A DNA stretch of 64,000 nt from Luidia sarsii (taxonomy: Eukaryota; Echinodermata; Asteroidea; Paxillosida; Luidiidae), in assembly GCA_949987565.1 (NCBI GenBank), contig OX465108.1:2418677-2482676 (forward strand), in the 5' to 3' direction. Positions 20,714 through 63,630 of this stretch are shown piece by piece. Each line of letters opens with the position of its first letter. Within the stretch, counting starts at the first letter, position 1. The position numbers were made by a program, and so were the translations under genes. The notes below the pieces were generated by a model. That model was not told the DNA's origin, made no database searches, and saw only the letters and a program-made list of their open reading frames with translations.

Positions 20714-20896
20714 TTAGCGATTCTTGGGCTTATAGGATTTGGCGGGTGGGGCACGGACAGCCGGGGTGGCCGTCGGGGGGCCGGCGGGGGCAGGGGGTGG
20801 TGGCGGGGGCTGGGGGCGTGCCCTGGGCGCCCCCGAGTACAGGCGCTGAGGGATGGGCGGGCGCAGGTCCTCTGGGTTGTTGTTAGTGCCGTGATG
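20714..20896 (-). CDS. Myosin exon 29 (proline-rich C-terminus and stop)
   Basis: Sixty codons and TAA. It encodes [18 protein letters not shown], a run of alternating prolines ([16 protein letters not shown]) and the basic ending [15 protein letters not shown] (1049-1054) matches the class II SH3 ligand PxxPxR. The phase is 0 with exon 28. Because it is GC-rich and low in complexity, all three frames are open; this one is set by phase and has the stop. Confidence 0.85.
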   Translation of the reverse strand, partial: HHGTNNNPEDLRPPIPQRLYSGAPRARPQPPPPPPAPAGPPTATPAVRAPPAKSYKPKNR

Positions 20897-23800: not shown

Positions 23801-26800
23801 CCCCAGATTTGAATAATTCAAATAACTGCATAATTGTTGACAATCGTGTCAGCAGTTGGCAGTATATCGCCATTTTGAAAACTCCATTTTGCTTGAATTT
23901 GGTCACTTCTCGTCATTACTCGTCACCGACCTTGATGCTATTATGTGCATGTACGTACCTGATCTGCATCGTTGGGTTCCACGTACAGGTAGGAGGCTTC
24001 ACTGACTGGTCTGCGCTTTTGGTAGGTGGAGTCTCTAGAGGGCGCTGTTGCACCACCGTTGGGATTGTAGATGGGCTGGATGGAGCGTGGGGTGAATTGC
24101 GGGCGACAGGGTCATAAGCGAGCCTCGTGTCAAAATCCATCGGCTATGGCTGGATTCTACACACGAGTCTATGGGGATAGGCTAGGGGGAAGCCAGGAAG
24201 CGGCTGCCCATAGACTTGTGCGCAATTCAAAGCCGTAGCCGATTCAATTGGACGGAGCCTTACGCATCCGTTCAAGCATGCTTGCGTGTGGATATGATGC
24301 AATGGAACACTGTGATATGGATGTGCATGTACAGTACTATACAGGAGAAGATAAACCCTTTCAACCTCGTCAAAATTCCATCCATGGGAAGATCGGAAAA
24401 ATTTGCATGAAATCTGTTGCGTTAATTGACCGCAGTGTAAAAAGGTCAGTCTCGATATTCTGGGCATTCCCAGGGAAAATATTGCAGTGTGAAAAGGCCT
24501 TGACTACTCGCATTCTTGGTCTCTAAGAGTGGCAATCTTACCTCTTCCTCCTCCTCCTCCTCCTTGCCTTTGTTCTTCAGGCTATTGACGACCGAAAGAG
24601 GGACCCCCGAGCCTCTCTTGTCCTTCCTGTCCGCGAGTAGATCGGCGTAGTCGAGCTCATTCTCAACCTGGAGAGGGGCGACAATGGACAGCATTGAGGT
24701 ATAAGGTGCCGTAAAGTGCAGTCAATCAAAGTAACGATAGGCTTACAGTTATACTAATGATAGGTAGATGAAATGGTAGATAGGAATCTTAGTTCTGACT
24801 TACTTGGCCACATGGATGTTTCAGGATATCTCCAAAGGGTGAAACTGGATTCTAAAAAGAGGGGAAAAAAGAAAATTTGATAACAGTCTACACTCGCAAG
24901 TAACTCTTTTTTTTACCCAGAGTAATATAGAACATTATTGGTGCCAACTGCTTGCTAAAATTTAATGTCAAGAGCCTGAAGTTTCGATTCTAGCAGGACT
25001 CTTTTCGATCAGAGCCTCAAACCATTACAAGCCTTCATCCTGTCATCAGATGGAGTAGGTTTGCGGTGACACCATGCAAAATTCTCTTTTGTGAATGTGT
25101 GGTTCTTAAAAGAACCGGAGGAACTCGATGTTTCAAACAGTATTTTGTTCGTCATCAGGAGTTACGGTATTCTCACCATGAAAACCTTCAAATCTCATTT
25201 AAGCCTTCAGATCTTACCCAAAGAAGTCCTACACTAACCACTGAAAATTAATCACTGAAGTCTTTGAGAAAGGTCCTGCTAGGATCCTGATGTCGAGCCC
25301 TCTATATTTTTTTTCAAGATGATCCTGAAAAATCACGAGAAAGAGATCTTTGGTGGTAGACCGCCTACCTTCTGGTAGAACTTCACCAGGTCCTGGAGGT
25401 CCTTGAATACGGGCATTTCGCCGACTACGATGTACTTCCCTGTGGGCGTCAGGTCTATCATGAAATGCTTGCAGCGCGTTTCACCCCTGTTATGAGAGAG
25501 TCGAGAGGAACTCCTGGTTAGAGGCACAACTGATACACACCAATTAAGATCTGCTTAACCACTTCACGCTAGGGCCAGGGCTAGGACTGGGGCTAGGAGT
25601 AGGGCTAGGGCTAGGACTGGGGCTGCAGCTGGGGCTGGGGCAAAGGCTAGGGCTAGGGCTGGGGCTAGGGCTGGGCCAGGGCTAGAGCTATGGCTAGAAG
25701 TGGGGGCTAGGGCTAGAGCTAAGGCTAGAGCTAGGGCTAGGGCTTGGGCTTGGGCTTGGGCTTGGGCTAGGGCTAGGGCTAGGGCTTGGGCTAGAGCCAG
25801 GGCTAGGGCTAAGGCTAGGGCTAGAGCTAGAGCTAGGGCTAGGGCTAGGGCTAGGACTAGGTCTGATGCCCAATGGCTGAAGCTACTTACTTGATGGACA
25901 GAGAGTAGCCAAAGCGACTCTCACTGACTCTGATCAAATAGGAGCCTATCTCCAGGTCATTGAGTAAATCCTCTGCTCGCCTATAAGAGTGGAGATAAGA
26001 CAATTGATACGTCATCATACATGTACATCATATCATACATCATATATCAGTGACAGATTCAACTTGACACACAATACTAATCAAATCTTCATTGAGTTAC
26101 ACTCTCGCCGATGCAAAATACATTTTTTTAAAAAAGAAACTGAGAGCAATATTCGTGGGAGATAAACCGAGGTTAATTGTTAACCAGTGCTGACTGGTTT
26201 ACCCTGACTGGGCTGCCACTCAAGGCATGGATAGCTCTGGGTAGAGCACTGTTACGTTTAATCAGAGGTTTGGCTTTAAATCCAGGTCCAGTCAATTTTT
26301 TTCAGATTGCATCTGTTTCTCCGAAAGCTGATGCACTCTTCCCAACTGTTTGGTCTGTGCTATCCATAGACATACTATACAATATAACTTATAGACTGAA
26401 CTGCCATGGGGGCTGCCATCTTTACCAAAGTATGGGCGGAAGTTATGAGTGTCGCCATGTTTGTACATCTGCTTGAATTGAACGCTGACCGTAAAAAAGC
26501 ATGCGACTGAAAAAACCCTCTATAGGCAGGAAGAGGGTCTCATATTTCGGCTCAATGAGTCCCCAAGTTCGTTTGATAACACACACCTCCGGGTGATGAT
26601 CCCGTGGAACCACTTGGCAAACAGTCCCGTCTGGTCCCGGACCGCCATGGACTGGGTGGCCTTGAACCAGTGGACCGAGGCCTGCCTGGTCCCCTCCTTG
26701 CCAAACAGGTTCTTCTTGATGCGCACAAACTCGTCCTCGATGATCTCGTCGTCCTCGTCATTGTCGTCCTCCTCTTCCTCGTCGGACGCCTCCTGCGGGG

Positions 26801-29800
26801 CACAAGTGACAACAACCAAAAGAAGTTAATGAATCTGTAAGGGGGCTGATGATGAAGCCTCAATTCTTCAGATCGTCGGCATTTTCGCAAAGTGGCGAAA
26901 ATCCGAGCACAAAAACTGAGTCTAAACCCATGTCTGTGTGTGTATAATCTTTGTGCCTATAACCTTCCGGTGGAGTTGACAAGTCAGATAAGGTTTGCAT
27001 GCCGGCTTGCATGGTGGAAATTTTGAGTGGAAGGTTTTGTGGTGACACCATGTAGCACTTCTCTTTCAAGAGTGTGGCTCTGAAAAGATCAGGCAACACA
27101 ATGTTTTGCGTATGTGTATCAACAAATTAGGAGGGCCCGACGTTTCGATCCTAGCCGGACCTTTCTCAAAGGCAAAATGACAAGGGACACAAACAAATAG
27201 GGAGGGAATGTGCATACCTTGTCTCCCTTGTTGTTGGCACCCTGTTGAAGCTGTATGGCTGGGGCCTCTATCTGGATCACTTTGTCTCCCCTTCGTATGG
27301 ACTCAAAAAAGGCTGCAAACACAAGATGCACCGTGAGAAGTATTACAGAAGAGTTTCGAGAATCTCAAAAGTTTGAGGGCCTGACGTTTCGATCCTAGAA
27401 GGACCTTTCTCAAAGGCTTTAGGGCCTGACGTTTCGATCCTAGAAGGACCTTTCTCAAAGGCTTTAGGGCCTGACGTTTCGATCCTAGAAGGACCTTTCT
27501 CAAAGGCTTTAGGGCCTGACGTTTCAATCCTAGAAGGACCTTTCTCAAAGGCTTTAGGGCCTGACGTTTCGATCCTAGAAGGACCTTTTTCAAAGGCTTT
27601 AGGGCCTGATGTTTCGATCCTAGAAAGACCTTTCTCAAAGGCTTTAGGGCCTGACGTTTCGATCCTAGAAGGACCTTTCTCAAAGGCTTTAGGGCCTGAC
27701 GTTTTCGATCCTAGAAGGACCTTTCTCAAAGGTCTTTGCTTGGATCGAAACGTCAGGCCCTCAGACTTTAACACACAAACTGTGGCAATCTTTTGGCCTT
27801 CACCAATGTTGCATAGGGCTTTTAATAAGGAAAGACCGACCAACTGTACTGTGCAGACTTACACTTGGGTATCTTCTTGTCGCCCTGCACCACCTTGGAC
27901 AGCTTCTGCTGCTGGTCCAGGCTCATCTTGGCCAGCTGGAGAAGGAAGGAGTTCATCTCCTCCCTCTGGATGGCGGCCTTCTTCTTCAGGGCCTTGTATC
28001 GGCACCTGGCCAGGAACCCGCGCACAACTGGCAGGGGGAAAAGAAAAAGAAGAAGAAGAAGAAAAAGAAGAAGAAAAAGAAGAAGAAAAAGAAGAAGAAA
28101 AAGAAGAGGAAAAAGAAGAAGAAAAAGAAGAAGAAAAAGAAGATGAAAAAGAAGTGGAAAAAGAAGAGGAAAAAGAAGAAGAAAAAGAAGAGGAAAAAGA
28201 AGAGGAAAAAGAAGAAGAAAAAGAAGAGAACAAGAAGAGGAAAAAGAAGAAGAAAAAGAAGAAGAAAAAGAAGAGGAAAAAGAAGAGGAAAAAGAAGAGG
28301 AAAAAGAAGAAGAAAAAGAAGAGGAAAAAGAAGAAGAAAAAGAAGAAGAAAAAGAAGAGGAAAAAGAAGAAGAAAAATAAGTTGAAAAAGAAGTTGAAAA
28401 AGAAGAAGAAAAAGAAGAGGAAAAAGAAGAAGAAAAAGAAGAAGAAAAAGAAGATGAAAAAGAAGAGGAAAAAGAAGAAGAAAAAGAAGAGGAAAAAGAA
28501 GAGGAAAAAGAAGAAGATGAGATCAACAAGCAATTGATTATTGTATCCAGCCTTCCTGATGATTCCCTCTCTATCTCCTTTCTTTAGCCCTTAACCTTGA
28601 GTGGCATTTTAGCCTTGTTTAGGGTGATTTTGCATTTAAAAAAATACTCAAGATATAAATTAACGTGATGTTCGCGTCAAGGAGAAGGTAATACAATGAG
28701 GGTTTGCCCTGCTCGATGTGATAAGCTTAAAGTGGTCAGTGCTTTGCCCGGTGGCTGATGAAAACATTTCAGGCAGCTTGGGTGGGTTCAGTTTGAAACC
28801 CGCCCGAGCAGCCTCGGTTATACTTGCTCGGCTTGGTTACACTTGCTTTACTCCTCGATATCAGTTGACAAAGGAAACACAGTGAGGGGGGAAACGCACT
28901 GTGAATATTATGTGTAAAAGGTCCATGTACGTGGGGTGATATAGTGACTTACTCTTCTGGATGTGCACGGCAGACTTGCCCATTTTCTGCATCTGTTCCT
29001 CCAACTGGTCCTGGTGGTAATACTTGAGGAAGATCTTGGTCTTGCTGCACATCAAATAATAAAGCAGACAAATTTGTAACTCCTGACAACATAAAAACTC
29101 AATAGCTTGAAGGACTTTTAGAATTCATCTGAGCTCCCTGGTGTCAGTTACTGTTATGCAGTACGTATCTCCATGCATTAAGGTTTTCCCATTGGCTCAT
29201 CAGAAACCTCATACTCATAGGCCCCCTAATCAGGGTAATTTAGAATGGACTTTTTACCATAATGAGTAAATAGTAATATTCTACATAGTACCGGTACTAC
29301 CTGTTGGTTATGGATAAAAAAACACATAAAAAAACAATTTGAACAATTCTAAAAAATAATAATTGAGCACTGGTACGTTAATCCAGATGTCTCGGGTTGG
29401 AGTCCCTGTCCAGTCAAAGTTTTCTTAATCAATTTATTTTTATTTTTCAATGTTTTCAAAGGTTCCCAATCAGTTTTTCCTTTATTTGTTTGACTGAAAT
29501 TCTAAAAAGCTGGTACAAGCACTGGTACATAAAACCAGAGGTCTCAGGTTCAAGTCCCGGTCCAGTCAAAGTTTTTCATTTTTCAAGATAACAAATTTAA
29601 GAGATGAACTCTATTAATTTTCGGCAAAGCTTTGGAAAACGTTCAGTTCATTTGGTGTCTGTAAGCAGTTCTCAGTACTTTTGAAATTCTTTTGAAATTC
29701 AATCTCTGTGTGTGTATTGGATATCAGGTCATGGCGGTCAAACAATTCTCTACTAATTTGTGTCTAAATGAAATTTAAAATCCCGCTTCTGCATCTTACA

Positions 29801-35800: not shown

Positions 35801-38041
35801 GTGAGCAAATAACCAACGATAACACGCTGAAGCCAATTTGTTTCATGCTGACATTACAGTGCGGTTAAAGCCATGTTCGCATCGGACTTCATTTTTGTCA
35901 AACTACCGTAGTGGCTGAGCGAAAGAATGACAAAAATAAATCCAATGCTGACAAGCGAAAAACTACCATCCCTGTCAACGTACCGCGTTGAGCGTGATGT
36001 AAAACTAACAACAGACACTAAATAACACAGTGCTCAATCAAGGGCTTTCTAAGTGCTGAAGAAATAGAAAAGTTGGCAAAGAAAACTCTGATTGGAGAGG
36101 GACTTGAACCCGAGACCTCTCAACGTACCAGCGCTCTTCCATCTGAGCTATCCAGCCCTTCCCTAATAGTCAACTATAATGAGTCAAAGCTTGGCTGTGA
36201 TCCATGGAGATATACGGCAGTTAATGGTTGAAATGCTTCTGCCTGGTTGCGCCCCCACACCAGCCCGAGACCAGACTATTTTCATGAGTGTATAATACGT
36301 GCTTTTAAACTAGCTACACTGCAAGGAGTGGGTATGGGCATCCTACCGGGTAGCTATCATACACCCCTCTATCCAGGGAAGGTGCAGGATTTCACTACAC
36401 TTTCTTAAAAATAGATAAAAAATCTGCAGGTAATTTTGGCAGAGCATCACATCCCCCCCCCAAAAAAAAATTCCCATCTGTCTCCTATGCAATTGCACAC
36501 GGGGTCCACTCACCCTGCCCGCATAGTGGTCAATGCTGAAGTTGTTGCTGGACGCCACCTTGGCCTTGACGTAGTGGTGGTTGCGGCCAAAGTTCTGGTT
36601 GAGCTTCTCCACAAAGGTGTGATCGGTGGCCCTGGGGAACAAGCACTCCTCGTCCAGCAGGGCCAGAATGCCGATGGGCTTGGCCAGGAACAGATTCTGT
36701 GTGAGGAAGTGGAAGGCGTCTCTCAATAACCAAAATACAAAAGAACAGACACTAATCAACACAGTGCTTAATCAAGGGATTTCTAAGTGCTAATAATTTA
36801 AGGTGAATTTTGCAAACTGCTTACTGACTAAAATTACCAAAATGCAAATCTTAGAATTTTGTGGGCCTGACGTTTCGATCCTAGCAGGACCTTTCTCAAA
36901 GGCAGAGCTAATAATTCAGATGCAAATTGTTTTAAAGCTTGCTACGGGAATTTGGCTACAGCAGCTCCCTATCAGTTTTTCCGTTGTTTGACTTGAATTG
37001 AAAAAAGCTGCATCCACTTTGTGTGATCCCCGAGCTGCCGTAGCCAGATTTACAACAATTGGTTGTTTGCATCTGAATGAAAGCGGGGTGTGATTCATGG
37101 GGATATACAGCAGTTAATGGTTGAATTGGTTCTGACTGGCGCCCCCACCCCGACAACTAGTCAACTAGACTGTTAGGGAAGGCCACCATCTAAGGGCTGG
37201 ATTGCACAGATGGTAAGAGCGCTGGTACGTTAATCCAGAGGTCTGTGTTACATGTCGTCAATGCAAACGAGTTCCCGTTAGCACCTTGATTGGAATATCC
37301 CAAACCAGTTTGGAAAACTATACATGTACAAGTTTTATACATTTCCAAAGAAAGAGTATCACACGGGCTAACCTAGAGTAAAAAGTGCATGTTCATGATC
37401 AGAATTCAGTACCGGGGAAGCTAAATGAATATGCTTTTTAATATCCAATTAACCCATTCACTGTCTTGAGCATACCGGCACCTCGACCACAAGTATAGTG
37501 CTAGGAAAATGAACGAGGAAATAAGAATGAAACACTGAAGTTTCCTACCAGAAGGGACTGATTGTTGACGAAGGGAACATAGGTCCAGTCAATGCCTTCA
37601 CTCTTGTACTCCTCCTGCTCCAACAGGAAAATGTGCTGTGCACAGAAAGAAAGAAACACGCCAGCATGTCAAAAGGGATTTCAAGTTATGAAAGATCGTG
37701 AGAACCACAGATACACATTAATACGTGTACAAACCAGATAAGGATGTACTGCAATTTAATGATGAGGATGGAACAAGCCACCACAGTACAGTGCTACCCA
37801 AGAAAGCTCTTCGACGAGGGTTTGCAACTGCTTTCAAATGAACTCCGCCCAAAAGAAAAAGGGGAAAAAGGTGCTGTAGCCTAGAAAGAGAGAGGGAGGA
37901 AGGAGAGAGAGAAGATAGAGAGGAGAGAAGAGAGAGAGGAGAGAGAGGAGAGAAAGAGGAGAGAGAGGAGAGAGAGAGAGAGAAGAGAGAGAACAGAAAG
38001 AAGAAAGAAGTGAGAGAGGAGGAGGGAGAGAGAGAGGAAGG

Positions 38042-38073
<32 letters not shown>

Positions 38074-51175: not shown

Positions 51176-51210
<35 letters not shown>

Positions 51211-57200: not shown

Positions 57201-60200
57201 AATCAGTGGGAGTTGTCATGTTTGCACGGATTATCTTCAGAATTCACCTCACGATGTCACACACAGATATGATAGAGTCCACCACACACATACAATATTG
57301 GATTATACAGTAGGTACCGGTATGGTACACGGGGCTACATGGCATAGGAAAATCCATTCATGAAGCAATGTTTGGATGCACATGGGTGCATGCACTATAC
57401 AGGACTTGTGAACTTGAACCAAAAGTTCAACATTTACATCTGTTTACCCTAAACATGAACCTTCAAATACCAGAACCATAGTGCTTTTCTGAAATGATTT
57501 GATGTATATAATCATTGTGCCTTTAAAGAAAATAAGACTTAGATACTGATACTGTATGTGTTATAATTCATCAAAATGAGCTTGAATGTGTTATTTATCG
57601 CAGAGACCCTTTAAAGCAAACCTTACCTGATCACAATGCACTGATTCTTCTTGCCACTGACAGCGCTGCCTGTCAGCATCCACTGGTAGGCTGAGTCGGA
57701 CACGGCAAAGATGTGCGGGGGATTGTCCACCCTCGTCTTGCCCTTGTACAACTCCGAGTGCTGAAACAGCGAGGAAACCATTCATGTCATACGGCTTGAA
57801 GATATGGATTTGAGAGGCTATCTTGGACCATCATCTTGTGTGTAATTCAGAGCCATAGCCATTGGAGTCAGAGATGGTCCCTCGTACAACTCTGAGTGCT
57901 GAAACACCGAGGAAACCATTCGCTTGAAGATATGGATTTGAGTGGCTATCAGCTTCCATAGACTTCTATGTAATTCAAAGCCATAGCCATTGGATTCAGA
58001 CATGGTCCCTTGTAACAGAAAGAAAGCCTTCAGCCTCTGGACCCATCTGTCTGTTGTGTCAGCTATGGAGTTGCACCACACAAGTCTTAGGGAAGTGGTG
58101 AGTGGTTATCAGATTCCATAGACTCCTGTGTAATCCAAAGCCATAACCCTTGAAGTCAGACATAGCCTGACATAAGATAGTCGATCAGTAATTACTGTTT
58201 CACCCAATTACAAATTTTCCGAGCAGGACCTTTTTGATCCTAGCAGGACCTTTCACATGCGATAGAAACATCAGGCCTTCATTATTTTTTTTCCAGAAAA
58301 TTAAGTGCATGTTCAATACAAATCACGTTAGAAGATTTAGGGCATCTTTGATAATTCAAATCAATCAACCATTCCTTTTATATATATTTTTGTATGCAAA
58401 TTTGCCCAAAACAAGGCTAAAGTCACTCAAGGTTAAGGGCGAAGGGAAGAAGGAGATAGAGAGGGAGTTTTTCAATTAAATTCAATTTATTTCTCCTTAT
58501 TCATAATTCCAATATAATTCCAATAATAATATAGGGACTGGGAAGGCTTGGAGATAGGAATTGACCTTGGTTCAAATTGCATATGTAGGCCTACACAGTG
58601 CACACTCGATGATAAGCCATGTGCAGTCAATGAGTGAAAGAAAAGCTCCAACCATAGAACTGAAATTTGAAGTCTTTTTCAAATGTTCAAATAAATTGCT
58701 TTCATCTTGGCTTGATAGTCCTCTGACTGCTCTGAGCCAAAGCTAAAGTGTTTCTAACTCTGGATTTTAAACAATAAGTGCAGATAGAATTTCAATCTAA
58801 AAAAAAAAAAAAAACGTGGAATCATACGATTCTGTTTAGTTCACGTCCGGCAAGTCCACAACAAAGGGACTTTCCCCCGACGCTAAGAAGGAAATCATCT
58901 TCGCGAGGCTGGAATTTCATCCGTGCCCCTTTTGTAAGCTGGGAGGGACAGTGTTCGCGTATGCATTCTCCCTTTCTCCTTACCCTAGGGCCAAGTGCCT
59001 GCCATACAGCAGCATTACCCCAGCACCTTGTGTGGGTGTGTGTTCGTGTGTGCGTGTGCGGGCATCCGTTGGAAATTTGTTTTCACAGCCTCGGGCCCCC
59101 GATTGGGGGATTTGTCCGCCGTCAAAATCCATCAACAAAATCTCGGTACACCCCCCTCCCCCCTCCTCCCCTCTCACCCAAATTGTCCCGGATGACACAA
59201 AAATGTGCCCCGTCCATCGGAGCGGAAAGATACAAATTTGAAAGCCCGCGTTTTGTTGTGGGTAGAAATTCGATGCGAGCATCGCGGAATAACAATGGGT
59301 GGTCGGCCCGCGGCGTAGACAGTAGTGTGAACCCACCCCCCCCATGGCTTCATCGCAGGCTCTACGTGTATACGAAGTGCCAGTGTGGGATGAATATGAG
59401 GAAGAAGAAGAAGAAGAAGAAGAAGAAGAAGAAGAAGAAGAAGAAGAAGAAGAAGAAGAAGAAGAAGAAGAAGAAGAAGAAGAAAGAGAAGAACACGAAG
59501 AAGAAGAACAAGAAGAAAAAAAAGAAAAAAAAAGTGTGCGGCCATGGCATAAAAGGCGGGCAGATGCAATAACGCCTTCCAAAATAACCCTGTGTTATTA
59601 AATCGCACCCAATAAGAGCCTGACATTACTGTCGTAAAGAGAAAGCACCTGTCTCAGGGACAAGTTCTTGAAAGGGGGGAAAGAAAAGGGAGAGAGTTCA
59701 CATACTCTATGTGCGATTGTGTGTCCTTAATTGTGCACAAGGGTAAGTAAGGTCCTGCATCTACAACCTGCTTGCTTTTCAATTGCTTTTATCCCCCCCC
59801 CCCTTTTTTCCAAATCATTTCAATTTTTCAATCATCGGCCTTTTGAGAAAGGTCCCGCTTGGATCGAAATGTCAGGCCCTGTTAATTTTTTTTTTTTTTT
59901 AAGATTTGAATTTGGCTCATTTAAGTCAGTAAGCAGTGAGTAACATGTTTGTATAAATAATTACTTTTGACTAAAAAAACAAAATGACACAAAAACATCA
60001 AACGTCACTTTCAGCTTTTGGAAATAAGCAAAGGGCAACTCATTCATCTTTAAATAGACAAATTGTGTAGCTGCCACGAGGATATCACTGACATACATCT
60101 GGGGGAAAACCAGCAGTGAAACTTCAGTTCTTAGATTACTCATAAGTTTAAACGTCTGGGGGAATTAATATCGTATTTGTTTTGGAGTCCAACTTTTCTT

Positions 60201-63200
60201 TTACTACGCTTCTGAAAATGCAGAGGGGCCTGATGATACGATCCTAGCAGAGTCCCAACTCTCAAACAATGAAGGAATTCCTCCATGCTCAAACTAAGGC
60301 AGAAGCGTCTGATATCCCAGTCTGCCTTTTCAAGAAAGGTCCTGCTGGGATCGAAACGTCCCGGCCCGCAAAATTTTCTGAGATTTATCGCTGGCTGTCG
60401 ATTGAAAATGCAACCAAGACGGAGTCAAGTTCCGCTAAAATCCATTTGAAGTCTTCTCGACTCCGTTGTTTGCATCTCGTGGAGCGATGCACCCAGTGAC
60501 CCCCCTGATGAGGATTGCTCCTCTATTCCAGCATCTGCGGGGATTCTGCTAACAATGTCATCCCACTAAAATCACGTTTATTGTGTCCACACACGTATGC
60601 AAAAATAGGTGGAGTTTGAATCGCGATTCAAATCGCGATCCAAATAATTGCGATCCAAATAATTGCGTTTATTTAGTGTAGCGGAAATGGCCCTACTGCA
60701 TACCTACACAAAAGTGGGGGATAAACAAAGTTCAATGGATGTGGTCAGGAAGTGTTGAACAGATGCAAATGCCCGATTACAAAAATAAATAATAATGATA
60801 AAAACGGGGTGTTCAAAGTAGGAGCACAGAGGGGAGTGGATGACACTTTGGAGACACCTCTCGTTGCGCTTCCGCAGGGCTGAACGCAGGCCCGTCCCAA
60901 GGAGAATTATGTGCTCCCACGTCAAGACGGTGTCAACCGATAGTCCCCCTCACCTTTGGGCCGTAGATGCCAAGATCCCTGAAGGGGTTCACCGCCACCA
61001 GGATATCACCGACATACGTCTGCAGGGTGGGGGGAAAAACAGCAATAAAAAATCACTTCTCAGATTACTCATAAGTATGAATGTCTAGGGGAATTAATAT
61101 TTTTTTTTTTTTTTTTTATACAACGTAGTATACAATAACGATATGTATGAGACAATTCTGAGCCTTATGGCAATGCCAGCACTCTTGAAATCAGATTTCA
61201 GAGGATTTGAGTAAAAGGTGAAGCTAGCGTAAGATAATATCTGAATACTTGCTTTATTATTTTCAACAGTGCCCAAATTCCTAAGGAGGGATGGACTGAC
61301 AGTATAGCTCTGTCTCCATGGTTACATCTTTTCAGGAAGCATATAATTACATGGTTCATCCATATGCCTGAAGAGATGTCCACATTATGGCGATGAACCT
61401 CAAATACATTTAGGTGTGCAAGATGATACTGACATTCCTTTAAATTATTTGAGGTGTTTTTTTTCCCTTCATGACAAGCCAAAGCATCAGAATGAACTAT
61501 GAGATGACTAAATGGATGTTTCTGTGGCCAAGAACTTAGATACAGCTTGAAAAATCATGCTACACAATAGGGTAACTGTTTACCAGGTAGGCTAGGAAAT
61601 TTTGGTCACTGGCTAATTAGGACCTATTTCACAGAGCCGCTTCAGCATTAAAATCAAGGGAAGAATGTTCATGCTTATACTGTTATAGCAGGCTTTCATG
61701 ATTAAAGGCCCAGTACAAGAAATTGGGAAGATCAGGAAACATAGATGTCCACAGATTTCCTTCTAATTTGTGCAGTTTGTAGATGGTCAATCCTCATATT
61801 AAAATCTTACGGTCTGGGATGCTATATGTTTCGAGAAATCTTCACTCAAACATCGACACATAGATTATTACTCGCGAGTAATAAACTATTTCTTACACTA
61901 CAGAACGGTGCGTAAACCGTGATGGTTTTGTGCATTTTTCTACTTTCTCAGATTACCATTTGAGCTAAAACGTTCGCAGTATTGCTTTTTTTTAATGTTT
62001 AAATGGTTTAACACACAAACTCTGGCAATCTTTTGACCTTTACCAATGTTGTATAGGGCCTTTCACTTTCAGCAGGTCTATGAAATTGCGCTCTGGCGAC
62101 AAACTTGCAGTTTCAGGTTGCTCGATGCAGTTTTCAAAGGTCACTGGTAACCCATACTATAGACTAGTGCTCTATAGGCAAACCAGCCACTGTTAAAAAT
62201 CAAGCCAAGGGCAGTCATGCATAGAATATGCAATGACAAGCACCTGTGCATTTGGCTTGAACCAATATGTATACAACACACATTTTTGGAAGGCCAGCGA
62301 ATTACACTTTATACAATCTGGCATGTACAGATGTATTCGGTTCTCTTTCAATTCATTATGTTGCCGACTGTGATGTTTGGAACTGTATATTTTTTCCAGC
62401 ACAGGCATTCTTCTGCAAATCGCTATTTTGCTGTTCCCTTACTCTGATCGGCCAAGTTTCATTACGCCACGCCGGCATTCTTGCTCCTCCGGCAAAATAA
62501 CCTTTTAGAGCGAGAAGGCCGGCATGACGTAATGAAAATTGGCCAATCAGATTTAGGGGACGGAAAAATATATCTAGAAACACTGCCTGCTAATGTTTTG
62601 GAGATATACGGCAGTTAATGGTTGAATAATTGCTTCTGACTGGCGCCCCCATCCTGCCAAAGACTAGTTGACTATTTGGGAGGCCACCATCTAGGGCTTG
62701 ATAGCTCAGATGGAAGACCACTGGTAAGTTAATCCAGAGGTCTCAGGTTCAAGTCCTGATCCAGTCAAAGTTTTCTTTGCCAATTTTTCAAATAGGGCAA
62801 GATTTTACTTTAATAACTGTAAAAGGGTGGGAAAAGTCCACAATTAGACAATAGAGTGGAGACCACCTATACTATTGTTATGAAGACAATAGCCATGGCA
62901 AAAAAATTGAAATTGGACAGGTAATTTTTCCAAAAATTAAACTGAAATATTTCCATCTCCAGTTCCATCTTCCATGTCTCAGCCCCTTCGGTAGATGGTC
63001 TGTCTTATCATTTAAATCAATATTATTATAGAGCATAGAGCAAGGATTGCTCAATCACATAGAGCCTATGTCTCACCACTTCTAACACTAACATGGACTC
63101 AAGTAGAATTCTCAAGACAAAACGGAGTGAAGTTACTGCGATATCTGCCACCGGCACGATACAGTAACATTAATTTCCAAGCACTCTTCAATACACGATA

Positions 63201-63630
63201 CACCTGTGTTAATTAGATGCAACTCATACCATGCTCGTAGTTATTTGTACATGTATACACTAGTAAGTAGTACTACTACTACTAGTAGTAGTAGTACTAG
63301 TACTACTACTAGTACTAGTAGTAGTACTACTACTAGTACTGTAGTCTAGTACTATACTAGTCATACTGCACACAGAAGCGCCGTTCAACTTCAACCTAGA
63401 CAATAACAGGTGTAACAACAGGTGTACCGTAAATACGATACCATCACTGCATCACCACCAGGTACCACGCACTAAAAGCTGTACCTGCCAACCTCCACCA
63501 CCATACTTACATAGATTTTATCGTGGTTGTAGCGGTGCCTCAGCTCTCCCAGCAGGATCTTCTCGTCCAGGTTCCCAAGCGTGGCCAAGTCATCCGTCTG
63601 GCCCACTGGGTTATCCACGGTACCTGCCAT
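20714..63630 (-). CDS. SH2-tailed unconventional myosin, complete 29-exon gene (span)
   Basis: This is an actin-based motor with a phosphotyrosine-reading tail. I rebuilt 29 coding exons by hand; all introns are GT-AG and all phases agree, giving about 1096 residues from ATG (63630) to TAA (20714). The motor spans about 1-690: P-loop GESGAGKT (108-115), switch I NDNSSRFG (157-164), switch II DIFGFE (384-389), TEDS site Asp328 and a basic loop 2 (542-566). A single IQ motif (IQKIVRGFLAR, about 712-722) should bind calmodulin or a light chain. An acidic linker and an SH2 domain (862 to about 940, binding Arg887) follow, then a tyrosine-motif tail and a proline-rich C-terminus. Motor sequence is closest by eye to class III-like myosins. 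The motor-IQ-SH2 order matches my memory of class XXVIII, which needs a phylogeny to confirm. It acts presumably at cortical actin downstream of tyrosine kinases (inference). The next gene on the same strand is a Csk-like kinase. Confidence 0.93.
20897..23958. other. Myosin intron 28
   Basis: It holds the inverted-repeat element 21483-21775 and a short aagcaagcaatc repeat (23158-23200). The rest shows nothing I recognise. Confidence 0.6.
21483..21775. mobile_element. Second foldback/MITE family with about 100-bp inverted arms
   Basis: The left arm gttatggcaccctctgttga through cattatcaagtaaagctg is the imperfect complement of cagctttaataatgtcaac through ggcgccataac. No coding capacity. It lies in the myosin exon 28-29 intron. 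Confidence 0.85.
23959..24075 (-). CDS. Myosin exon 28 (tyrosine-rich tail)
   Basis: An alternative frame is longer, but acceptor ctccatccag|CCC with a pyrimidine-rich lead and phase 0 selects [19 protein letters not shown] then [20 protein letters not shown] (39 codons exactly). It contains four tyrosines including YVEP (1028-1031), a YxxP motif of the kind bound by Crk-type SH2 domains. Donor CAG|gtacgt, phase 0. Confidence 0.8.
24140..24300. repeat. Dispersed repeat with CATAGACTCGTGTG-type inverted segments
   Basis: cggctatggctggattctac, acacgagtctatgggg and cccatagacttgtgcg form inverted segments. Related sequence lies at 46545-46640 and 57800-58160. Confidence 0.55.
24542..24667 (-). 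CDS. Myosin exon 27 (ITIM-like LDYADL)
   Basis: Forty-two codons, phase 0 at both ends: [18 protein letters not shown], then [20 protein letters not shown] and more glutamates. LDYADL (residues 960-965) fits the ITIM-type pattern [ILV]xYxx[LV], a possible docking site for SH2 proteins once phosphorylated. Confidence 0.82.
24804..24851 (-). CDS. Myosin exon 26 ([16 protein letters not shown])
   Basis: Sixteen codons, phase 0 at both ends, acceptor tttttag, donor CAA|gtaagt. The position just after the SH2 domain and the ..ILKHPCGQ ending resemble the closing segment of SH2D4-like SH2 domains. It is short, so support comes mainly from splice sites and phase. Confidence 0.8.
25053..25205. mobile_element. 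Foldback element with antisense hammerhead-like core
   Basis: The arm ggtttgcggtgacaccatgc is followed by a core whose complement reads CTGATGACGAACA, a six-base loop, then TGTTTGAAACATCGAG. It ends with accttcaaatct. It lies in the intron between myosin exons 25 and 26. Confidence 0.7.
25369..25486 (-). CDS. Myosin exon 25 (SH2 C-terminal half)
   Basis: It encodes [18 protein letters not shown], then [20 protein letters not shown]. The RCKHFMID strand and the D.QDLV.FY helix complete the SH2 fold. Phase 2 in, phase 0 out (AAG|gtaggc). Confidence 0.94.
25567..25862. repeat. GGGCTA hexamer array
   Basis: About 295 bp of gggcta with variants (ggactg, gggctt, agagct), between the two SH2-core exons of the myosin. 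Confidence 0.93.
25891..25980 (-). CDS. Myosin exon 24 (SH2 core with binding arginine)
   Basis: It encodes [18 protein letters not shown] then [12 protein letters not shown]. Arg887 in YLIRVSES is the beta-B5 arginine that contacts phosphotyrosine. The LIRVSES form resembles the SH2D4/HSH2D-type SH2 domains rather than the Src-type FLVRES. The exon is followed in the intron by a GGGCTA array. Confidence 0.94.
26195..26300 (+). mobile_element. Degenerate tRNA SINE
   Basis: ggatagctctgggtagagca then ggtccagtcaatttttttc match the family; the B box is lost. Confidence 0.55.
26587..26792 (-). CDS. Myosin exon 23 (acidic linker and SH2 start)
   Basis: It begins with a strongly acidic segment ([16 protein letters not shown]), followed by [17 protein letters not shown]. 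It then opens the SH2 domain with WFHGIITR at residues 862-869. The acidic cluster could interact with the basic motor loop or with partners (inference). Phase 0 in, phase 2 out (AG|gtgtgt). Confidence 0.93.
26987..27093. mobile_element. Foldback element, left half
   Basis: It carries aaggtttgcatg, ggtgacaccatgtagcactt and gtgtggctctgaaaag as in the 45171 copy. It lies in the intron between myosin exons 22 and 23. Confidence 0.65.
27125..27210 (-). mobile_element. Penelope-like 3' fragment beside myosin exon 22
   Basis: It holds the motif cgtttcgatcctag and the adjoining tcaaaggcaaaatgaca block of the Penelope 3' UTR in reverse orientation. It ends within about 12 bp of the exon 22 donor. 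Confidence 0.75.
27218..27312 (-). CDS. Myosin exon 22 (post-IQ linker)
   Basis: Thirty-two codons with the split serine. It encodes [17 protein letters not shown] then [15 protein letters not shown] recognise no domain. The frame is fixed by phases on both sides. A Penelope-like 3' fragment begins within about 12 bp of its donor (AAG|gtatgc). Confidence 0.82.
27376..27735 (-). repeat. 45-bp tandem array of Penelope hammerhead-like motif (8 units)
   Basis: Unit starts fall at 27376, 27421, 27466, 27511, 27556, 27601, 27646 and 27691, an exact 45-bp period. Each unit is the motif gggcctgacgtttcgatcct plus aaggacctttctcaaagg. A single motif in the opposite orientation follows at 27733-27766. 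The array is inside the intron between myosin exons 21 and 22. Because 45 is a multiple of 3, it gives long spurious ORFs. Confidence 0.95.
27767..27825. mobile_element. MITE fragment, same family
   Basis: Only the terminal about 58 bp remain (tttaacacacaaactgtggc to accaatgttgcatagggct), directly beside the 45-bp Penelope-motif array. Confidence 0.75.
27863..28027 (-). CDS. Myosin exon 21 (IQ motif and helical neck)
   Basis: It completes the IQ motif ([14 protein letters not shown]) and continues as a charged, probably helical stretch ([34 protein letters not shown]). Its acceptor is preceded on the coding strand by about 490 bases of CT-rich microsatellite. Phase 1 in and out (T|gtaagt). 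Confidence 0.9.
28031..28518. repeat. Purine microsatellite (GAAAAAGAAGAA-type)
   Basis: About 490 bp with only purines apart from a few bases. On the coding strand it forms the pyrimidine tract immediately before myosin exon 21. Confidence 0.95.
28543..28645 (+). mobile_element. LINE 3' UTR tail
   Basis: cttaaccttgagtggcattt then tagccttgtttagggtgatt matches the 237-480 copy. Confidence 0.65.
28953..29044 (-). CDS. Myosin exon 20 ([15 protein letters not shown], start of IQ)
   Basis: It encodes the end of the converter (GKTKIFLK) and the lever-arm start ([18 protein letters not shown]), ending VHIQK with the first residues of the IQ motif. Phase 2 in, phase 1 out (A|gtaagt). Confidence 0.93.
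29360..29590 (+). mobile_element. Two tandem 3' halves of the tRNA SINE
   Basis: Two segments, each running from gcactggtac to gtccagtcaaagtttt, lie at 29371-29425 and 29518-29580. Confidence 0.65.
29901..29996 (-). CDS. Myosin exon 19 (converter)
   Basis: It encodes [17 protein letters not shown] then [15 protein letters not shown], the converter, ending in split glycine codon GG|gtgagt. It joins KTKIF of the next exon as expected for all myosins. Confidence 0.92.
30290..30375 (-). CDS. Myosin exon 18 ([17 protein letters not shown])
   Basis: It encodes [18 protein letters not shown] then [11 protein letters not shown], corresponding to the SH1-SH2 helices of the motor. The polypyrimidine tract before the acceptor is a (GA)n microsatellite on the plus strand. 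Phase 0 in, phase 2 out. Confidence 0.94.
30386..30615. repeat. (GA)n and (CAC/CAT)n microsatellites
   Basis: (GA)n at 30386-30417 is the pyrimidine tract of the exon 18 acceptor on the coding strand. A loose caccatcatcaccaccatc repeat follows. Confidence 0.85.
31588..31622. repeat. Poly-G tract
   Basis: A run of 19 or more G, then further G blocks. Confidence 0.85.
31848..32330. repeat. TCATCCTCATCTTC microsatellite
   Basis: About 480 bp of pyrimidine-rich tcatcttcatcttcctcatc units, open in all plus frames. Confidence 0.93.
32458..32577 (-). CDS. Myosin exon 17 (HFVRCVKPN)
   Basis: Forty codons, phase 0 at both ends. It encodes [19 protein letters not shown] and [18 protein letters not shown], including the invariant HFVRCVKPN motif. 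The exon reads straight on from GAQFK of exon 16. Confidence 0.95.
32805..33086. mobile_element. MITE, related family (terminus CACTACACAACATTGG)
   Basis: It begins aaagccactacacaacattgg and ends ccaatgttgtgtaggggctt. The interior differs from the first family but has the same kind of palindrome (aaatagtttacatctcaccg). Confidence 0.85.
33844..33894 (-). CDS. Myosin exon 16 (TVGAQFK)
   Basis: A 17-codon microexon, [17 protein letters not shown], phase 0 at both ends. It carries the conserved TVG.QFK motif after loop 2. Acceptor ttatag, donor AAG|gtgagc. Confidence 0.9.
34060..34185 (-). mobile_element. LINE 3' UTR tail
   Basis: A reverse copy with tgcaaatcgcccaaaacaag and aaagccactcaaggttcaag. 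Confidence 0.65.
34354..34427 (-). CDS. Myosin exon 15 (basic loop 2)
   Basis: The phase carried over from exon 14 selects the frame [18 protein letters not shown] then RKSAKQR, not the acidic alternative frame. This places a strongly basic insert (residues 542-566) at loop 2, the main electrostatic contact with actin. The exon abuts a 37-bp tandem array that starts 17 bp beyond its acceptor. Confidence 0.85.
34445..35073. repeat. 37-bp tandem array (about 17 units)
   Basis: Units of the form agaaagtcatacaaaaatgc plus ttcagaaaaacattgcc, with cttcag/attcag variants. As 37 is not a multiple of 3, all three frames give the same 37-residue repeat. It begins 17 bp beyond the exon 15 acceptor. Confidence 0.95.
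35122..35460. mobile_element. MITE, same family
   Basis: It runs from cgatgtccacagatttccct to accaatgttgtatagggcct, lacking most of one terminal repeat. It ends about 25 bp from myosin exon 14. Confidence 0.85.
35486..35597 (-). CDS. Myosin exon 14 ([13 protein letters not shown])
   Basis: It encodes [19 protein letters not shown] and [18 protein letters not shown], the actin-binding HLH region of the lower 50K domain. Phase 0 in, phase 1 out (G|gtatgg). A MITE ends about 25 bp downstream of its donor. Confidence 0.94.
36085..36262 (-). mobile_element. tRNA-derived SINE
   Basis: Reverse copy: gggacttgaacccgagacct, ccatctgagctatccagccc, cggcagttaatggttgaaat. Confidence 0.8.
36514..36696 (-). 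CDS. Myosin exon 13 ([20 protein letters not shown])
   Basis: Sixty-one codons, phase 0 at both ends. The open frame extends 24 bases further upstream, but acceptor ccacttcctcacacag|AAT at 36696 gives the correct phase and the expected [16 protein letters not shown] junction. The exon then encodes [16 protein letters not shown] and FSIDHYAGR, ending at AGG|gtgagt. Confidence 0.93.
36860..36905 (-). repeat. Solo Penelope hammerhead-like motif
   Basis: cctgacgtttcgatcctagc followed by aggacctttctcaaaggcag, matching the Penelope 3' UTR core in reverse. It lies in the intron between myosin exons 12 and 13. Confidence 0.7.
37095..37258 (+). mobile_element. tRNA-derived SINE, B box damaged
   Basis: Forward copy with the 5' block and ggtaagagcgctggtacg. 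The A box is altered (ttgcacagatgg) and the sequence diverges after gaggtct. Confidence 0.75.
37549..37635 (-). CDS. Myosin exon 12 ([17 protein letters not shown])
   Basis: Twenty-nine codons, phase 0 at both ends. It encodes [19 protein letters not shown] and [10 protein letters not shown], the relay loop. The usual W after EGI is present. Donor CTG|gtagga. Confidence 0.93.
37880..38115. repeat. (GA)n-rich tract
   Basis: About 235 bp of gagagagagg-type purine repeats in the exon 11-12 intron. Confidence 0.92.
38424..38524 (-). CDS. Myosin exon 11 (switch II and relay helix)
   Basis: It encodes [11 protein letters not shown] (switch II) and [19 protein letters not shown] (relay helix), which are diagnostic of myosin motors and fully intact. 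Acceptor ccag, donor CAG|gtagga (phase 0). Confidence 0.96.
38915..39720. repeat. AGGGGTGGGGAGACA minisatellite
   Basis: About 800 bp with a unit near 18-20 bp (ggggtggggagacaaaag) and higher-order repeats of about 190 bp. Strongly G-biased. Confidence 0.93.
39813..39932 (-). CDS. Myosin exon 10 ([14 protein letters not shown])
   Basis: It encodes [19 protein letters not shown] and [21 protein letters not shown], the motor segment leading to the relay region. Phase 1 in and out, donor G|gtgagt. An 800-bp minisatellite lies about 90 bp downstream of the exon in the next intron. Confidence 0.94.
40915..41015. repeat. Head-to-head pair of Penelope hammerhead-like motifs
   Basis: A reverse motif (40927-40970) is joined to a forward motif (40972-41010), making a near-perfect palindrome centred on aaggcagaatgcctt. 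Confidence 0.85.
41755..42548. repeat. GAGAGG purine microsatellite
   Basis: About 790 bp. The core 41815-42180 is almost pure gagagg hexamer with two cagtgacagg interruptions, followed by diverged gacagagagg repeats. Confidence 0.95.
43133..43241 (-). CDS. Myosin exon 9 (TEDS-site exon)
   Basis: It encodes [18 protein letters not shown], then [18 protein letters not shown]. Asp328 in KGDV lies 16 residues before the conserved DA of RDAMTK, so it occupies the TEDS-rule position. An acidic residue there normally means motor activity does not depend on heavy-chain phosphorylation. Phase 0 in, phase 1 out. Confidence 0.92.
43300..43480 (-). mobile_element. tRNA-derived SINE
   Basis: Reverse orientation: gggacttgaacccgagacct (B box), ccatctgagctatccagccc (A box), then the family 5' block. 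A forward copy follows at 43508, so the pair can fold back. Confidence 0.82.
43508..43640 (+). mobile_element. tRNA-derived SINE
   Basis: Forward copy with gaaggtcaccatctaagggc, agatagctcagatgg and gggttcaagtcccattccag. Confidence 0.8.
43795..43850. repeat. G-rich tract
   Basis: Runs of 6 to about 18 G separated by short spacers, a candidate G-quadruplex region. A similar tract lies at 49918-49965. Confidence 0.8.
44542..44732. mobile_element. Foldback element
   Basis: Palindromic arms: gacttcaagtggagggattg with ggaaaccttcaaatctta, and gacacaatgtgaatcgtctc with gagatgatattacattgtgtc. The centre is gccggctcttttcagagcc. Confidence 0.82.
45171..45498. mobile_element. Foldback element, longest copy (about 330 bp)
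   Basis: Arms of about 130 bp: taagacttgaaggtttgcat pairs with atgcaaacctttaagtctta at the other end. The centre holds cctggcgacaggcagagtgc then acactacacgaaacgttgag, the counterpart of the hammerhead-like core. A further right arm follows at 45518-45602. Confidence 0.9.
45835..45968 (-). mobile_element. Second tRNA-like SINE family
   Basis: gactggaacccgcgactccc (B-box-like, reverse), ccaccgagctgg (A-box side) and ctgctcgacgtgataaacac. The last part recurs at 28708-28800, which also has tttgcccggtggctgatgaa. Confidence 0.5.
46167..46289 (-). CDS. Myosin exon 8 ([16 protein letters not shown])
   Basis: Forty-one codons, phase 0 at both ends. It encodes [20 protein letters not shown], which aligns with the motor consensus for the helix before loop 3, followed by an acidic stretch (DANDDDAAF). 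Acceptor ctgcag, donor ACG|gtatgt. Confidence 0.92.
47040..47260 (+). mobile_element. LINE 3' end, frameshifted copy
   Basis: The same family as 237-480: ccctcattctgcctccatct gives [14 protein letters not shown], then a stop breaks the frame. The tail cttgagtggcttttcagcct matches. Confidence 0.75.
47606..47752. mobile_element. Tc1/pogo-like MITE, truncated copy
   Basis: It shares ggatccatgaaaatg, ggtatagcggtcattcgtta and cgttatagcgacgtt with the 2862 copy in the same family. Confidence 0.75.
48690..48905 (-). mobile_element. Penelope-like 3' UTR fragment
   Basis: A diverged reverse-orientation copy with the hammerhead-like motif and purine-rich 3' UTR repeats, in the intron downstream of myosin exon 7. 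Confidence 0.7.
48968..49073 (-). CDS. Myosin exon 7 (upper 50K, low-conservation segment)
   Basis: Thirty-six codons including the split lysine. It encodes [15 protein letters not shown], then [17 protein letters not shown], which corresponds to the F..l..Am..vGf.dE motor segment. The donor is GAG|gtaaaa, a weak variant followed by an A-run. A Penelope-like 3' fragment lies in the adjacent intron. Confidence 0.88.
49741..49897 (-). CDS. Myosin exon 6 ([12 protein letters not shown])
   Basis: It encodes [17 protein letters not shown], then [20 protein letters not shown], the standard upper-50K motor sequence. Phase 1 in, phase 2 out (AA|gtgagt). A G-rich tract of about 50 bp lies just outside its acceptor. 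Confidence 0.94.
51181..51208. repeat. Poly-A run
   Basis: About 27 A. Other long A runs are at 42736-42758 and 52214-52238. Confidence 0.85.
52438..52535 (+). mobile_element. SINE 3' fragment
   Basis: ctcaagtcccggtccagtca and the common tail ttttccctttatttgtttca. Confidence 0.55.
52637..52739 (-). CDS. Myosin exon 5 (switch I)
   Basis: It encodes [18 protein letters not shown] and the switch I element [10 protein letters not shown], followed by IQLKFKEGK. The acceptor is ccacag and the donor G|gtgagg (phase 1). The sequence is intact at every conserved switch I position I can check. Confidence 0.94.
52900..53665. repeat. CT-rich microsatellite
   Basis: About 765 bp of ctctctcccc-type repeat in the intron upstream of myosin exon 5. 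It is open in all plus frames as Ser/Leu/Pro artefacts. Confidence 0.95.
55150..55325 (+). mobile_element. tRNA-derived SINE
   Basis: It has the family 5' block (gcagttaaggttaatggttg, ttctgactggcgcc, ggaaggccaccatctaagag). A tRNA-like part follows: A box TAGCTCAGATGG and B box GGTTCAAGTCC. It ends at ccggtccagtcaaagttttc. Confidence 0.82.
55529..55631 (-). CDS. Myosin exon 4 (P-loop GESGAGKT)
   Basis: It encodes the ATP-binding P-loop [11 protein letters not shown] and the following helix ([20 protein letters not shown]). The split serine codon before GESG joins exon 3 (phase 2), and the exon ends CAG|gtacgt in phase 0. All nucleotide-binding residues of the loop are present. Confidence 0.95.
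56161..56517. mobile_element. MITE, terminal inverted repeat GGCCCAATACAACATTGG
   Basis: It begins aggcccaatacaacattgg and ends ccaatgttgtattgggcct. An internal imperfect palindrome surrounds the ttactcgtgagtaa core. About 357 bp, non-coding, in the myosin exon 3-4 intron. Confidence 0.9.
57627..57760 (-). CDS. Myosin exon 3 ([14 protein letters not shown])
   Basis: The exon runs from acceptor tttcag|CAC to donor AG|gtaagg (phase 2). It encodes [25 protein letters not shown] and QCIVI leading into the P-loop. The acceptor and the first 20 or so bases of the exon are tandemly duplicated just upstream at 57879-58008. Confidence 0.93.
57741..58008. repeat. Tandem duplication (about 135 bp) including a splice acceptor
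   Basis: The block 57741-57878 is repeated at 57879-58008. It includes the first bases of myosin exon 3, its acceptor and about 115 bp of intron (cgaggaaaccattc, cttgaagatatggatttgag, gccatagccattgga). Confidence 0.9.
58390..58475 (-). mobile_element. LINE 3' UTR tail
   Basis: A reverse copy with tttgcccaaaacaaggctaa and gtcactcaaggttaagggcg. Confidence 0.6.
59397..59535. repeat. (GAA)n microsatellite
   Basis: About 30 uninterrupted GAA units, then interrupted ones, in the exon 2-3 intron. GAA runs of this kind can form triplexes. Confidence 0.95.
59835..59885 (+). repeat. Solo Penelope hammerhead-like motif
   Basis: gagaaaggtcccgcttggat followed by cgaaatgtcaggccc, the Penelope core with a few substitutions. 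Further diverged copies lie at 25257-25305, 45640-45675, 55690-55730 and 60325-60365. Confidence 0.7.
60070..60172 (-). pseudogene. Degenerate duplicate of myosin exon 2 and its flank
   Basis: Acceptor ccccag at 60099-60100 is followed by [13 protein letters not shown] against [13 protein letters not shown] in exon 2. The intron flank also matches 61021-61100 (agattactcataagt, ggggaattaatat). It has no matching donor, and the VNPF and IYG positions are lost, so it is a pseudo-exon. Confidence 0.82.
60954..61019 (-). CDS. Myosin exon 2 ([13 protein letters not shown])
   Basis: Twenty-two codons, phase 0 at both ends, acceptor ctgcag and donor AAG|gtgagg. It encodes the highly conserved [18 protein letters not shown] strand of the motor. 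A degenerate copy of the first part of this exon lies about 0.9 kb downstream at 60075-60172. Confidence 0.93.
61704..62063. mobile_element. MITE, same family, opposite orientation
   Basis: It begins aaaggcccagtacaag and ends accaatgttgtatagggcct. The internal ttactcgcgagtaataaact palindrome is shared with the 56161 copy. Confidence 0.9.
62600..62775 (+). mobile_element. tRNA-derived SINE
   Basis: The same layout as at 55150: ggcagttaatggttg, ttctgactggcgccccc, A box tagctcagatgg, B box ggttcaagtcc and gtccagtcaaagttttc-type end (here tgatccagtcaaag). Confidence 0.82.
63264..63362. repeat. (AGT)n/(ACT)n palindromic triplet repeat
   Basis: Alternating blocks such as tactactactactagtagta make the run self-complementary. 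It lies 150 bp downstream of exon 1, in intron 1. Confidence 0.9.
63511..63630 (-). CDS. Myosin exon 1 (residues 1-40, start codon)
   Basis: The reading begins with ATG at 63630 (MAGTVDNP). It runs into the N-terminal motor motif [19 protein letters not shown], typical of myosins whose motor starts close to the N-terminus. It ends at donor TAT|gtaagt, phase 0. This ATG is chosen because the motif begins 13 residues downstream and no SH3-like N-terminal subdomain is present. The frame is also open upstream for 25 codons, but these look unrelated to myosin. Confidence 0.9.

What the first reader, a model, noticed from the sequence alone, without database searches (positions are those of the whole stretch)
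20714..63630. A myosin motor carrying an SH2 domain
The sequence shows a complete motor, one IQ motif, an acidic linker and an intact SH2 domain in one phase-consistent 29-exon gene. Human myosins have no SH2 domain. From memory, class XXVIII myosins have this order. The protein would link actin motility directly to tyrosine phosphorylation.
Basis: partly seen in the sequence, partly recalled or inferred. Interest (0 to 1): 0.8.

Follow-up and report, generated by a model that had tools for sequence, protein, structure and literature searches.

The report
Sea-star SH2-tailed myosin (class XXVIII)
The window holds an intact sea-star gene for a myosin motor that ends in a phosphotyrosine-reading SH2 domain; this is a known but little-studied myosin class, and its tail may be the ancestor of a vertebrate immune-cell adaptor.

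Summary
On the minus strand, 63630 to 20714, 29 exons joined by GT-AG introns in consistent phase encode 1096 residues with one stop: myosin motor, one IQ motif, acidic linker, complete SH2 domain, proline-rich end. Three sea-star orthologues are 79-83% identical over 93-94% of the query. Of the 120 best relatives listed, 116 carry both motor and SH2; 18 of the 120 lie on contigs under 6 kb, so motor and SH2 are probably one mRNA there. [quoted passage not shown] It is a new member of a known kind. What I could add: the SH2 belongs to a conserved module of about 125 residues (WFxxTQ helix, SH2, then D-Y-x-[ED]-L) kept from sponges to vertebrates. A fish HSH2D adaptor shares all of it, and HSH2D groups with vertebrate class XXVIII SH2 domains (95/92 to 98/95). 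That join is between long branches, and HSH2D outside the class is not rejected (AU p 0.109-0.153).

The parts
63511..63630 (-). exon 1, start codon, aa 1-40
   Evidence: same start as asteroid orthologues
60954..61019 (-). exon 2, aa 41-62
   Evidence: GT-AG, phase
57627..57760 (-). exon 3, aa 63-107
55529..55631 (-). exon 4, P-loop GESGAGKT, aa 107-141
52637..52739 (-). exon 5, switch [10 protein letters not shown], aa 142-176
49741..49897 (-). exon 6, aa 176-228
48968..49073 (-). exon 7, aa 228-263
46167..46289 (-). exon 8, aa 264-304
43133..43241 (-). exon 9, aa 305-341
39813..39932 (-). exon 10, aa 341-381
38424..38524 (-). exon 11, switch II DIFGFE, aa 381-414
37549..37635 (-). exon 12, aa 415-443
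36514..36696 (-). exon 13, aa 444-504
35486..35597 (-). exon 14, aa 505-542
34354..34427 (-). exon 15, basic surface loop (loop name by recall), aa 542-566
33844..33894 (-). exon 16, aa 567-583
32458..32577 (-). exon 17, aa 584-623
30290..30375 (-). exon 18, aa 624-652
29901..29996 (-). exon 19, converter region (by recall), aa 652-684
28953..29044 (-). exon 20, end of motor and start of IQ, aa 684-715
27863..28027 (-). exon 21, rest of IQ (aa 707-726) and lever helix, aa 715-770
27218..27312 (-). exon 22, aa 770-801
26587..26792 (-). exon 23, acidic linker (aa 802-823), WFKATQ motif, SH2 start, aa 802-870
25891..25980 (-). exon 24, SH2 with FLVR-type Arg887, aa 870-900
25369..25486 (-). exon 25, SH2, aa 900-939
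24804..24851 (-). exon 26, SH2 end [16 protein letters not shown], aa 940-955
   Evidence: found by comparison with relatives
24542..24667 (-). exon 27, conserved DYADL (Tyr962), aa 956-997
23959..24075 (-). exon 28, [10 protein letters not shown], aa 998-1036
20714..20896 (-). exon 29, proline-rich C-terminus and stop
   Evidence: resembles the Amphiura C-terminus
24638..26669 (-). extended SH2 module (aa 843-965, in exons 23-27)
   Evidence: conservation in 116 class XXVIII rows; structured in the orthologue model up to about the last tyrosine

Best explanation
This is the sea-star orthologue of class XXVIII myosin (many relatives are labelled 'myosin-IIIb-like' in databases). Shown here: one open gene with the motor signatures, one IQ motif and a complete SH2 domain with its phosphotyrosine-pocket residues. 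Inferred mechanism: a light-chain-binding lever drives a probably single-headed actin motor; the flexible acidic linker lets the SH2 module dock on tyrosine-phosphorylated proteins, such as receptors or adhesion scaffolds. The motor is thereby recruited to sites of tyrosine-kinase signalling, or pulls that cargo along actin. The conserved tyrosine just after the SH2 domain (D-Y-x-[ED]-L, Tyr962) is itself a possible phosphorylation site and may control docking in cis or in trans.
For: 29-exon chain. Pfam Myosin_head, IQ and SH2. Orthologues at 79-83% identity, and 116 of 120 listed relatives with both domains. Motor tree (quick method, window plus 21 of the 120 hits): the window sits with Acanthaster, Patiria and Asterias (100); the 22 class XXVIII motors are one side of a branch at 89, and they plus a recalled MYO3A row are apart from MYO7A, MYO15 and MYO10 at 99. 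In 116 rows with a whole SH2: Arg887 116, His907 114, Arg869 115, Trp843, Phe844 and Gln848 116 each, Tyr962 110, Leu965 110. AlphaFold2 model of the Acanthaster orthologue: a helix at 836-847 and the SH2 strands and helices, blocks 831-960 at mean pLDDT 80-94, and one long helix at 691-765. Class definition: PMC2375034 (passages).
Against: No ligand, light-chain, expression or motility data were found. The window has only 370 bases upstream of the ATG, so the absence of a further 5' domain rests on orthologues that start at the same place. Alternative last exons are likely: the Acanthaster, Patiria and Asterias models end differently after YLY. Some relatives have truncated SH2 models. The block with Tyr961 of Acanthaster (our Tyr962) has pLDDT 67, so that motif may be flexible. 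The clade support of 89 for the class XXVIII motors is below the tool's star.
Confidence: 0.93

Rival explanations
1. It is a class III myosin (as many database labels say) that lost its kinase and gained an SH2 domain in this lineage.
For: Many named relatives are labelled myosin-IIIb-like; PMC3942036 places SH2-tailed choanoflagellate and filasterean myosins in a 'myosin III-like' group (passages); a human MYO3A motor recalled from memory is the nearest row outside the 22 class XXVIII motors (a lead only).
Against: The architecture is shared by sponges, cnidarians, molluscs, echinoderms, hemichordates, amphioxus and vertebrates, so it is no recent change. No Pfam kinase domain in the model up to E 0.1. 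Class XXVIII is separately named and dated to the holozoan ancestor.
Confidence: 0.04
2. Motor and SH2 exons are two neighbouring genes read together by mistake.
For: A second SH2 gene (CSK-like) lies 3' on the same strand, so SH2 exons are near in any case.
Against: Phase-consistent junctions; 116 of 120 listed relatives have both domains in one protein, 18 of them on contigs of 3.3-5.5 kb; the myosin SH2 groups with other class XXVIII SH2 domains and apart from the window's CSK-like SH2.
Confidence: 0.01
3. The gene makes mainly an SH2-less motor, the SH2 exons being an optional end.
For: Two isoform X2 models (Nematostella P0056, Tubulanus P0069) end inside the SH2.
Against: The module is conserved residue by residue across 116 rows, which an unused end would not be.
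Confidence: 0.02

Closest known systems
Class XXVIII myosins (Odronitz and Kollmar 2007, PMC2375034; class-28 in PMC5583752)
   Same: Motor, one IQ, C-terminal SH2; close orthologues in other sea stars
   Different: Nothing essential; a new species and an apparently alternative proline-rich last exon
Class III myosins (MYO3A/MYO3B)
   Same: Nearest other motor in a tree with one recalled row; the source of many database labels
   Different: Class III has an N-terminal kinase and several IQ motifs (PMC3942036) and no SH2 (recall)
Choanoflagellate and filasterean myosin III-like SH2 myosins (PMC3942036)
   Same: SH2 on a related motor
   Different: Not compared directly here; varied architectures
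HSH2D (hematopoietic SH2 adaptor); SH2D2A, SH2D7 and SH2D4A only from recalled letters
   Same: Best SH2 match in the PDB (2cs0, E 9.9e-19); the Myxocyprinus protein P0143 has WFTEFQ before and NDYVELL after the SH2
   Different: No motor, no IQ; Takifugu HSH2D lacks the WF motif
Hemichordate RING-SH2 proteins (P0125 Glandiceps, P0144 Ptychodera)
   Same: P0125 carries the whole module, 55% identical
   Different: RING finger and a weak B-box-like match instead of a motor; P0144 lacks the WF and Tyr motifs

Membership tests
Class XXVIII myosin | Complete myosin motor | tested here: met
   PF00063 profile 1-679 of 679, E 1.2e-224
Class XXVIII myosin | One IQ motif | tested here: met
   one IQ match, 23.8 bits against cut-off 20.3
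Class XXVIII myosin | Short coiled coil between IQ and SH2 | tested here: inconclusive
   one long helix 691-765 in the orthologue model; pairing not tested
Class XXVIII myosin | C-terminal SH2 | tested here: met
   SH2 profile 1-77 of 77; pocket Arg887
Class XXVIII myosin | Motor groups with class XXVIII motors | tested here: met
   with SH2-tailed myosins of sea stars, molluscs, sponge, coral and vertebrates, 22 rows, SH-aLRT 89, not starred; the rows' class is taken from architecture and taxa, not from a label
Class III myosin | N-terminal protein kinase domain | tested here: not met
   none in the model; asteroid orthologues start at the same place; only 370 bases upstream are in the window
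Class III myosin | Several IQ motifs | tested here: not met
   one IQ
HSH2D-type adaptor | Free SH2 adaptor without motor | tested here: not met
   the motor is present; the shared part is the module alone

The most novel reading that the evidence does not exclude
The vertebrate SH2 adaptor HSH2D, and perhaps SH2D2A, SH2D7 and SH2D4A, are detached tails of class XXVIII myosin. The WFxxTQ-SH2-DYxEL module arose on the myosin before animals, was copied free of the motor in early vertebrates (and separately onto a RING protein in acorn worms), and is what mammals kept after losing the motor. The adaptors would then inherit a ligand mode first used to tie actin motility to tyrosine kinases.
Probability: 0.35. 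Interest if true: 0.65.

Novelty: new member of a known kind. Interest (0 to 1): 0.38.

Why it matters
Class XXVIII couples a motor to a built-in phosphotyrosine reader. My nine literature searches showed classification papers but no functional study in the listings seen, several of which were capped. Sea stars are good material for one, and labels such as 'myosin-IIIb-like' or 'serine/threonine protein kinase' on many relatives hide the class. If HSH2D-type adaptors descend from its tail, their binding partners would be a guide to what this motor carries, and the reverse.

Tried and rejected
The first exon chain (28 exons) missed exon 26; comparison with relatives corrected it. The idea that the SH2 came from the neighbouring CSK-like gene was rejected: the CSK-like SH2 falls with the outgroups. 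A conserved basophilic kinase site before WFxxTQ (RQAS in the window) was considered and dropped: in 116 rows the serine position is T 65, S 33, A 14, N 3, L 1. HSH2D outside class XXVIII could not be rejected (AU p 0.109 and 0.153, 0.109); only holding the named class XXVIII rows alone together was rejected (p 0.0276 and 0.0305), and that also shuts out four unnamed tail fragments. One search warns that HSH2D and the vertebrate myosin rows are long branches that meet. SH2D2A, SH2D7 and SH2D4A were placed only from recalled letters, and SH2D4A is a long branch. No search of the window's own genome was possible: the genome search did not complete, the same request each time. Liu et al. 2011 on SH2 proteins was not held. 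Literature searches for class XXVIII or for a link between HSH2D and myosin; no functional study or stated link in the titles and abstract starts listed (listings capped). The MYO3A row is recalled, so the class III question is not settled by my tree. A coiled-coil prediction and a fold search were not run.

Full report
Observation. The gene is on the minus strand. Scanning for motifs found the P-loop, switch I, switch II and the SH2 string GSYLIR only on that strand. Chaining open frames by splice sites and phase gave 28 exons and 1080 residues. Aligning this with 15 relatives showed about 16 more residues at the end of the SH2 domain in the others; the matching 48-base exon lies at 24851-24804 with good splice signals. 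The final model has 29 exons, 1096 residues, 28 GT-AG introns, consistent phases and one terminal stop.

Domains. On the 1080-residue version Pfam gives a full-length motor (E 1.2e-224), one IQ and a full-length SH2 (E 8.2e-15). Between IQ and SH2 lies an acidic stretch ([22 protein letters not shown]). The C-terminus is proline-rich. The best solved relatives of the motor are MYO7A, MYO15 and MYO10; of the SH2 (query from the 1080 version), human HSH2D (2cs0, E 9.9e-19), ahead of RASA1 at 6.3e-14.

Relatives. A search of 5.8 billion proteins listed the best 120 of 7975: Acanthaster and Patiria at 83%, Asterias at 79%, then brittle star, sea urchins, crinoids, sea cucumber, hemichordates, brachiopod, annelid, molluscs, sponges, corals, jellyfish, amphioxus, sharks and rays, bony fishes, a newt and birds; no mammal appears among the names shown. 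By the precomputed Pfam column 116 of 120 have both motor and SH2; the four without are P0056, P0064, P0069 and P0100. Eighteen of the 120 have a longest contig of 3.3-5.5 kb, the size of a spliced mRNA, so there motor and SH2 are probably one transcript (inference from contig length). The window's species is therefore an asteroid; the motor tree puts it with the three asteroid rows (100).

Known class. [quoted passage not shown] Passages of PMC5583752 report class-28 in Capsaspora and an origin in the last common holozoan ancestor. Passages of PMC3942036 speak of myosin III-like proteins with SH2 domains in choanoflagellates and a C-terminal SH2 in filastereans. The finding is thus a new member of a known kind.

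The module. Of 121 rows (window plus 120 hits), five were dropped because the SH2 was absent or cut (P0049, P0056, P0064, P0069, P0100), leaving 116. Rows were picked by the W-[FLI]-[HYQ]-[GR] start of the SH2, so that stretch is conserved partly by construction. Outside it, W843, F844 and Q848 are invariant, T847 is kept in 115, the phosphotyrosine-binding Arg887 in 116, Arg869 in 115, His907 in 114, C953 in 111, D961 in 107, Y962 in 110 and L965 in 110. The AlphaFold2 model of the Acanthaster orthologue (68 sequences, mean pLDDT 78.7) has a helix at 836-847, which holds the WFKATQ motif, and the SH2 elements; blocks 831-960 have pLDDT 80-94, and 961-970 has 67. I read this as one unit: N-terminal helix, SH2, and a tail tyrosine in a YxxL setting. 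No inter-residue confidence was returned, so the packing and the tyrosine's role are inference.

Where else the module occurs. A tail-only search (18 hits) found, besides myosin tails and unnamed fragments, a Glandiceps RING protein (55% identity) and Takifugu HSH2D (51-52%). A profile search (29 hits) added Myxocyprinus HSH2D and a Ptychodera RING-SH2 protein labelled SH2D2A-like, together with kinases such as SYK. The Glandiceps protein has EGSREASVRWFKETQ before and GECDYGDLL after the SH2; Myxocyprinus HSH2D has WFTEFQ and NDYVELL. Against a tidy picture: the Ptychodera protein lacks both motifs, and Takifugu HSH2D lacks the WF motif but keeps HYAELL.

Trees. With 48 rows (30 of the 120 hits, the window, and others), HSH2D (three rows) and eight vertebrate class XXVIII SH2 domains are one side of a branch at 98/95; without the outgroups and two long rows it is 91/95; with 125 rows it is 95/92, against 51 class XXVIII rows, of which I had marked 49 as vertebrate beforehand (four of those unnamed, marked by rank only). 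One search warns that exactly these two groups are long branches that meet, so the join may be false. Holding HSH2D outside class XXVIII plus four unnamed tail fragments costs 2.9 to 10.9 log units and is not rejected (p 0.109 in both); with the RING rows also inside it costs 3.9, p 0.153. Holding the named class XXVIII rows alone together is rejected (p 0.0276, 0.0305), but those tests also exclude the tail fragments, at least two of which (P0127, P0130) show IQ or converter remnants by eye and so look like myosins. With recalled human SH2D2A, SH2D7 and SH2D4A added, all join the same vertebrate group (98/96); that is a lead. The descent of HSH2D from the myosin tail is thus favoured but not shown.

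Mechanism. Motor, lever and SH2 pocket are intact by sequence. The simplest working model is an actin motor recruited by phosphotyrosine through a flexible acidic linker. Self-binding of phosphorylated Tyr962 is possible and untested. A CSK-like gene lies next door on the same strand (its SH2 shown by Pfam; its SH3 and kinase stretches recognised from memory); whether this neighbourhood is conserved could not be tested.

Verdict. Observation confirmed; interpretation supported; ordinary for the class; modest interest overall, with the adaptor-descent idea as the part worth testing.

Noticed in passing
window 700-5500, minus strand: CSK-like gene on the same strand 3' of the myosin, cut by the window start; the SH2 frame at 3803-3429 has Pfam SH2 E 6.4e-24, SH3 and kinase-start stretches recognised by eye from memory.
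   Followed up: partly
window 1422, 1546, 5688, 5729, 6087, 25097, 27072, 44624, 45255, 45392, 45522: Eleven copies of a histone-mRNA 3' stem-loop-like sequence (up to 3 mismatches; mean 0.02 expected) in both orientations; Rfam RF00032 gives three above its cut-off and two just below: a dispersed repeat family that seems to carry the histone hairpin.
   Followed up: partly
window 15338-17932, plus strand: 865-residue open frame with a GIY-YIG endonuclease match above and a reverse transcriptase match below Pfam's cut-off (E 1.4e-5 and 1.2e-5); by recall a Penelope-like element, between the myosin and the CSK-like gene.
   Followed up: partly
window about 60165-60050, minus strand: Degenerate second copy of exon 2 with its 5' splice region, about 0.9 kb downstream of exon 2 ([10 protein letters not shown]...), apparently decayed.
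   Followed up: partly
window 43303-43376 (-), 62695-62767 (+), 55245-55318 (+), 36089-36157 (-): Four tRNA-like Rfam matches inside introns, two called tRNA-Asn by ARAGORN; possibly tRNA-derived SINEs.
   Followed up: no
window 34445-35072, 27363-27737, 38912-39711, 52905-53664: Large tandem arrays in the introns, e.g. 37 bp x 17, 45 bp x 8.3 and 17 bp x 48.
   Followed up: no
P0125 (Glandiceps talaboti) and P0144 (Ptychodera flava): Acorn-worm RING-finger proteins with an SH2 domain of the class XXVIII type; P0125 carries the whole module, P0144 only the SH2.
   Followed up: partly
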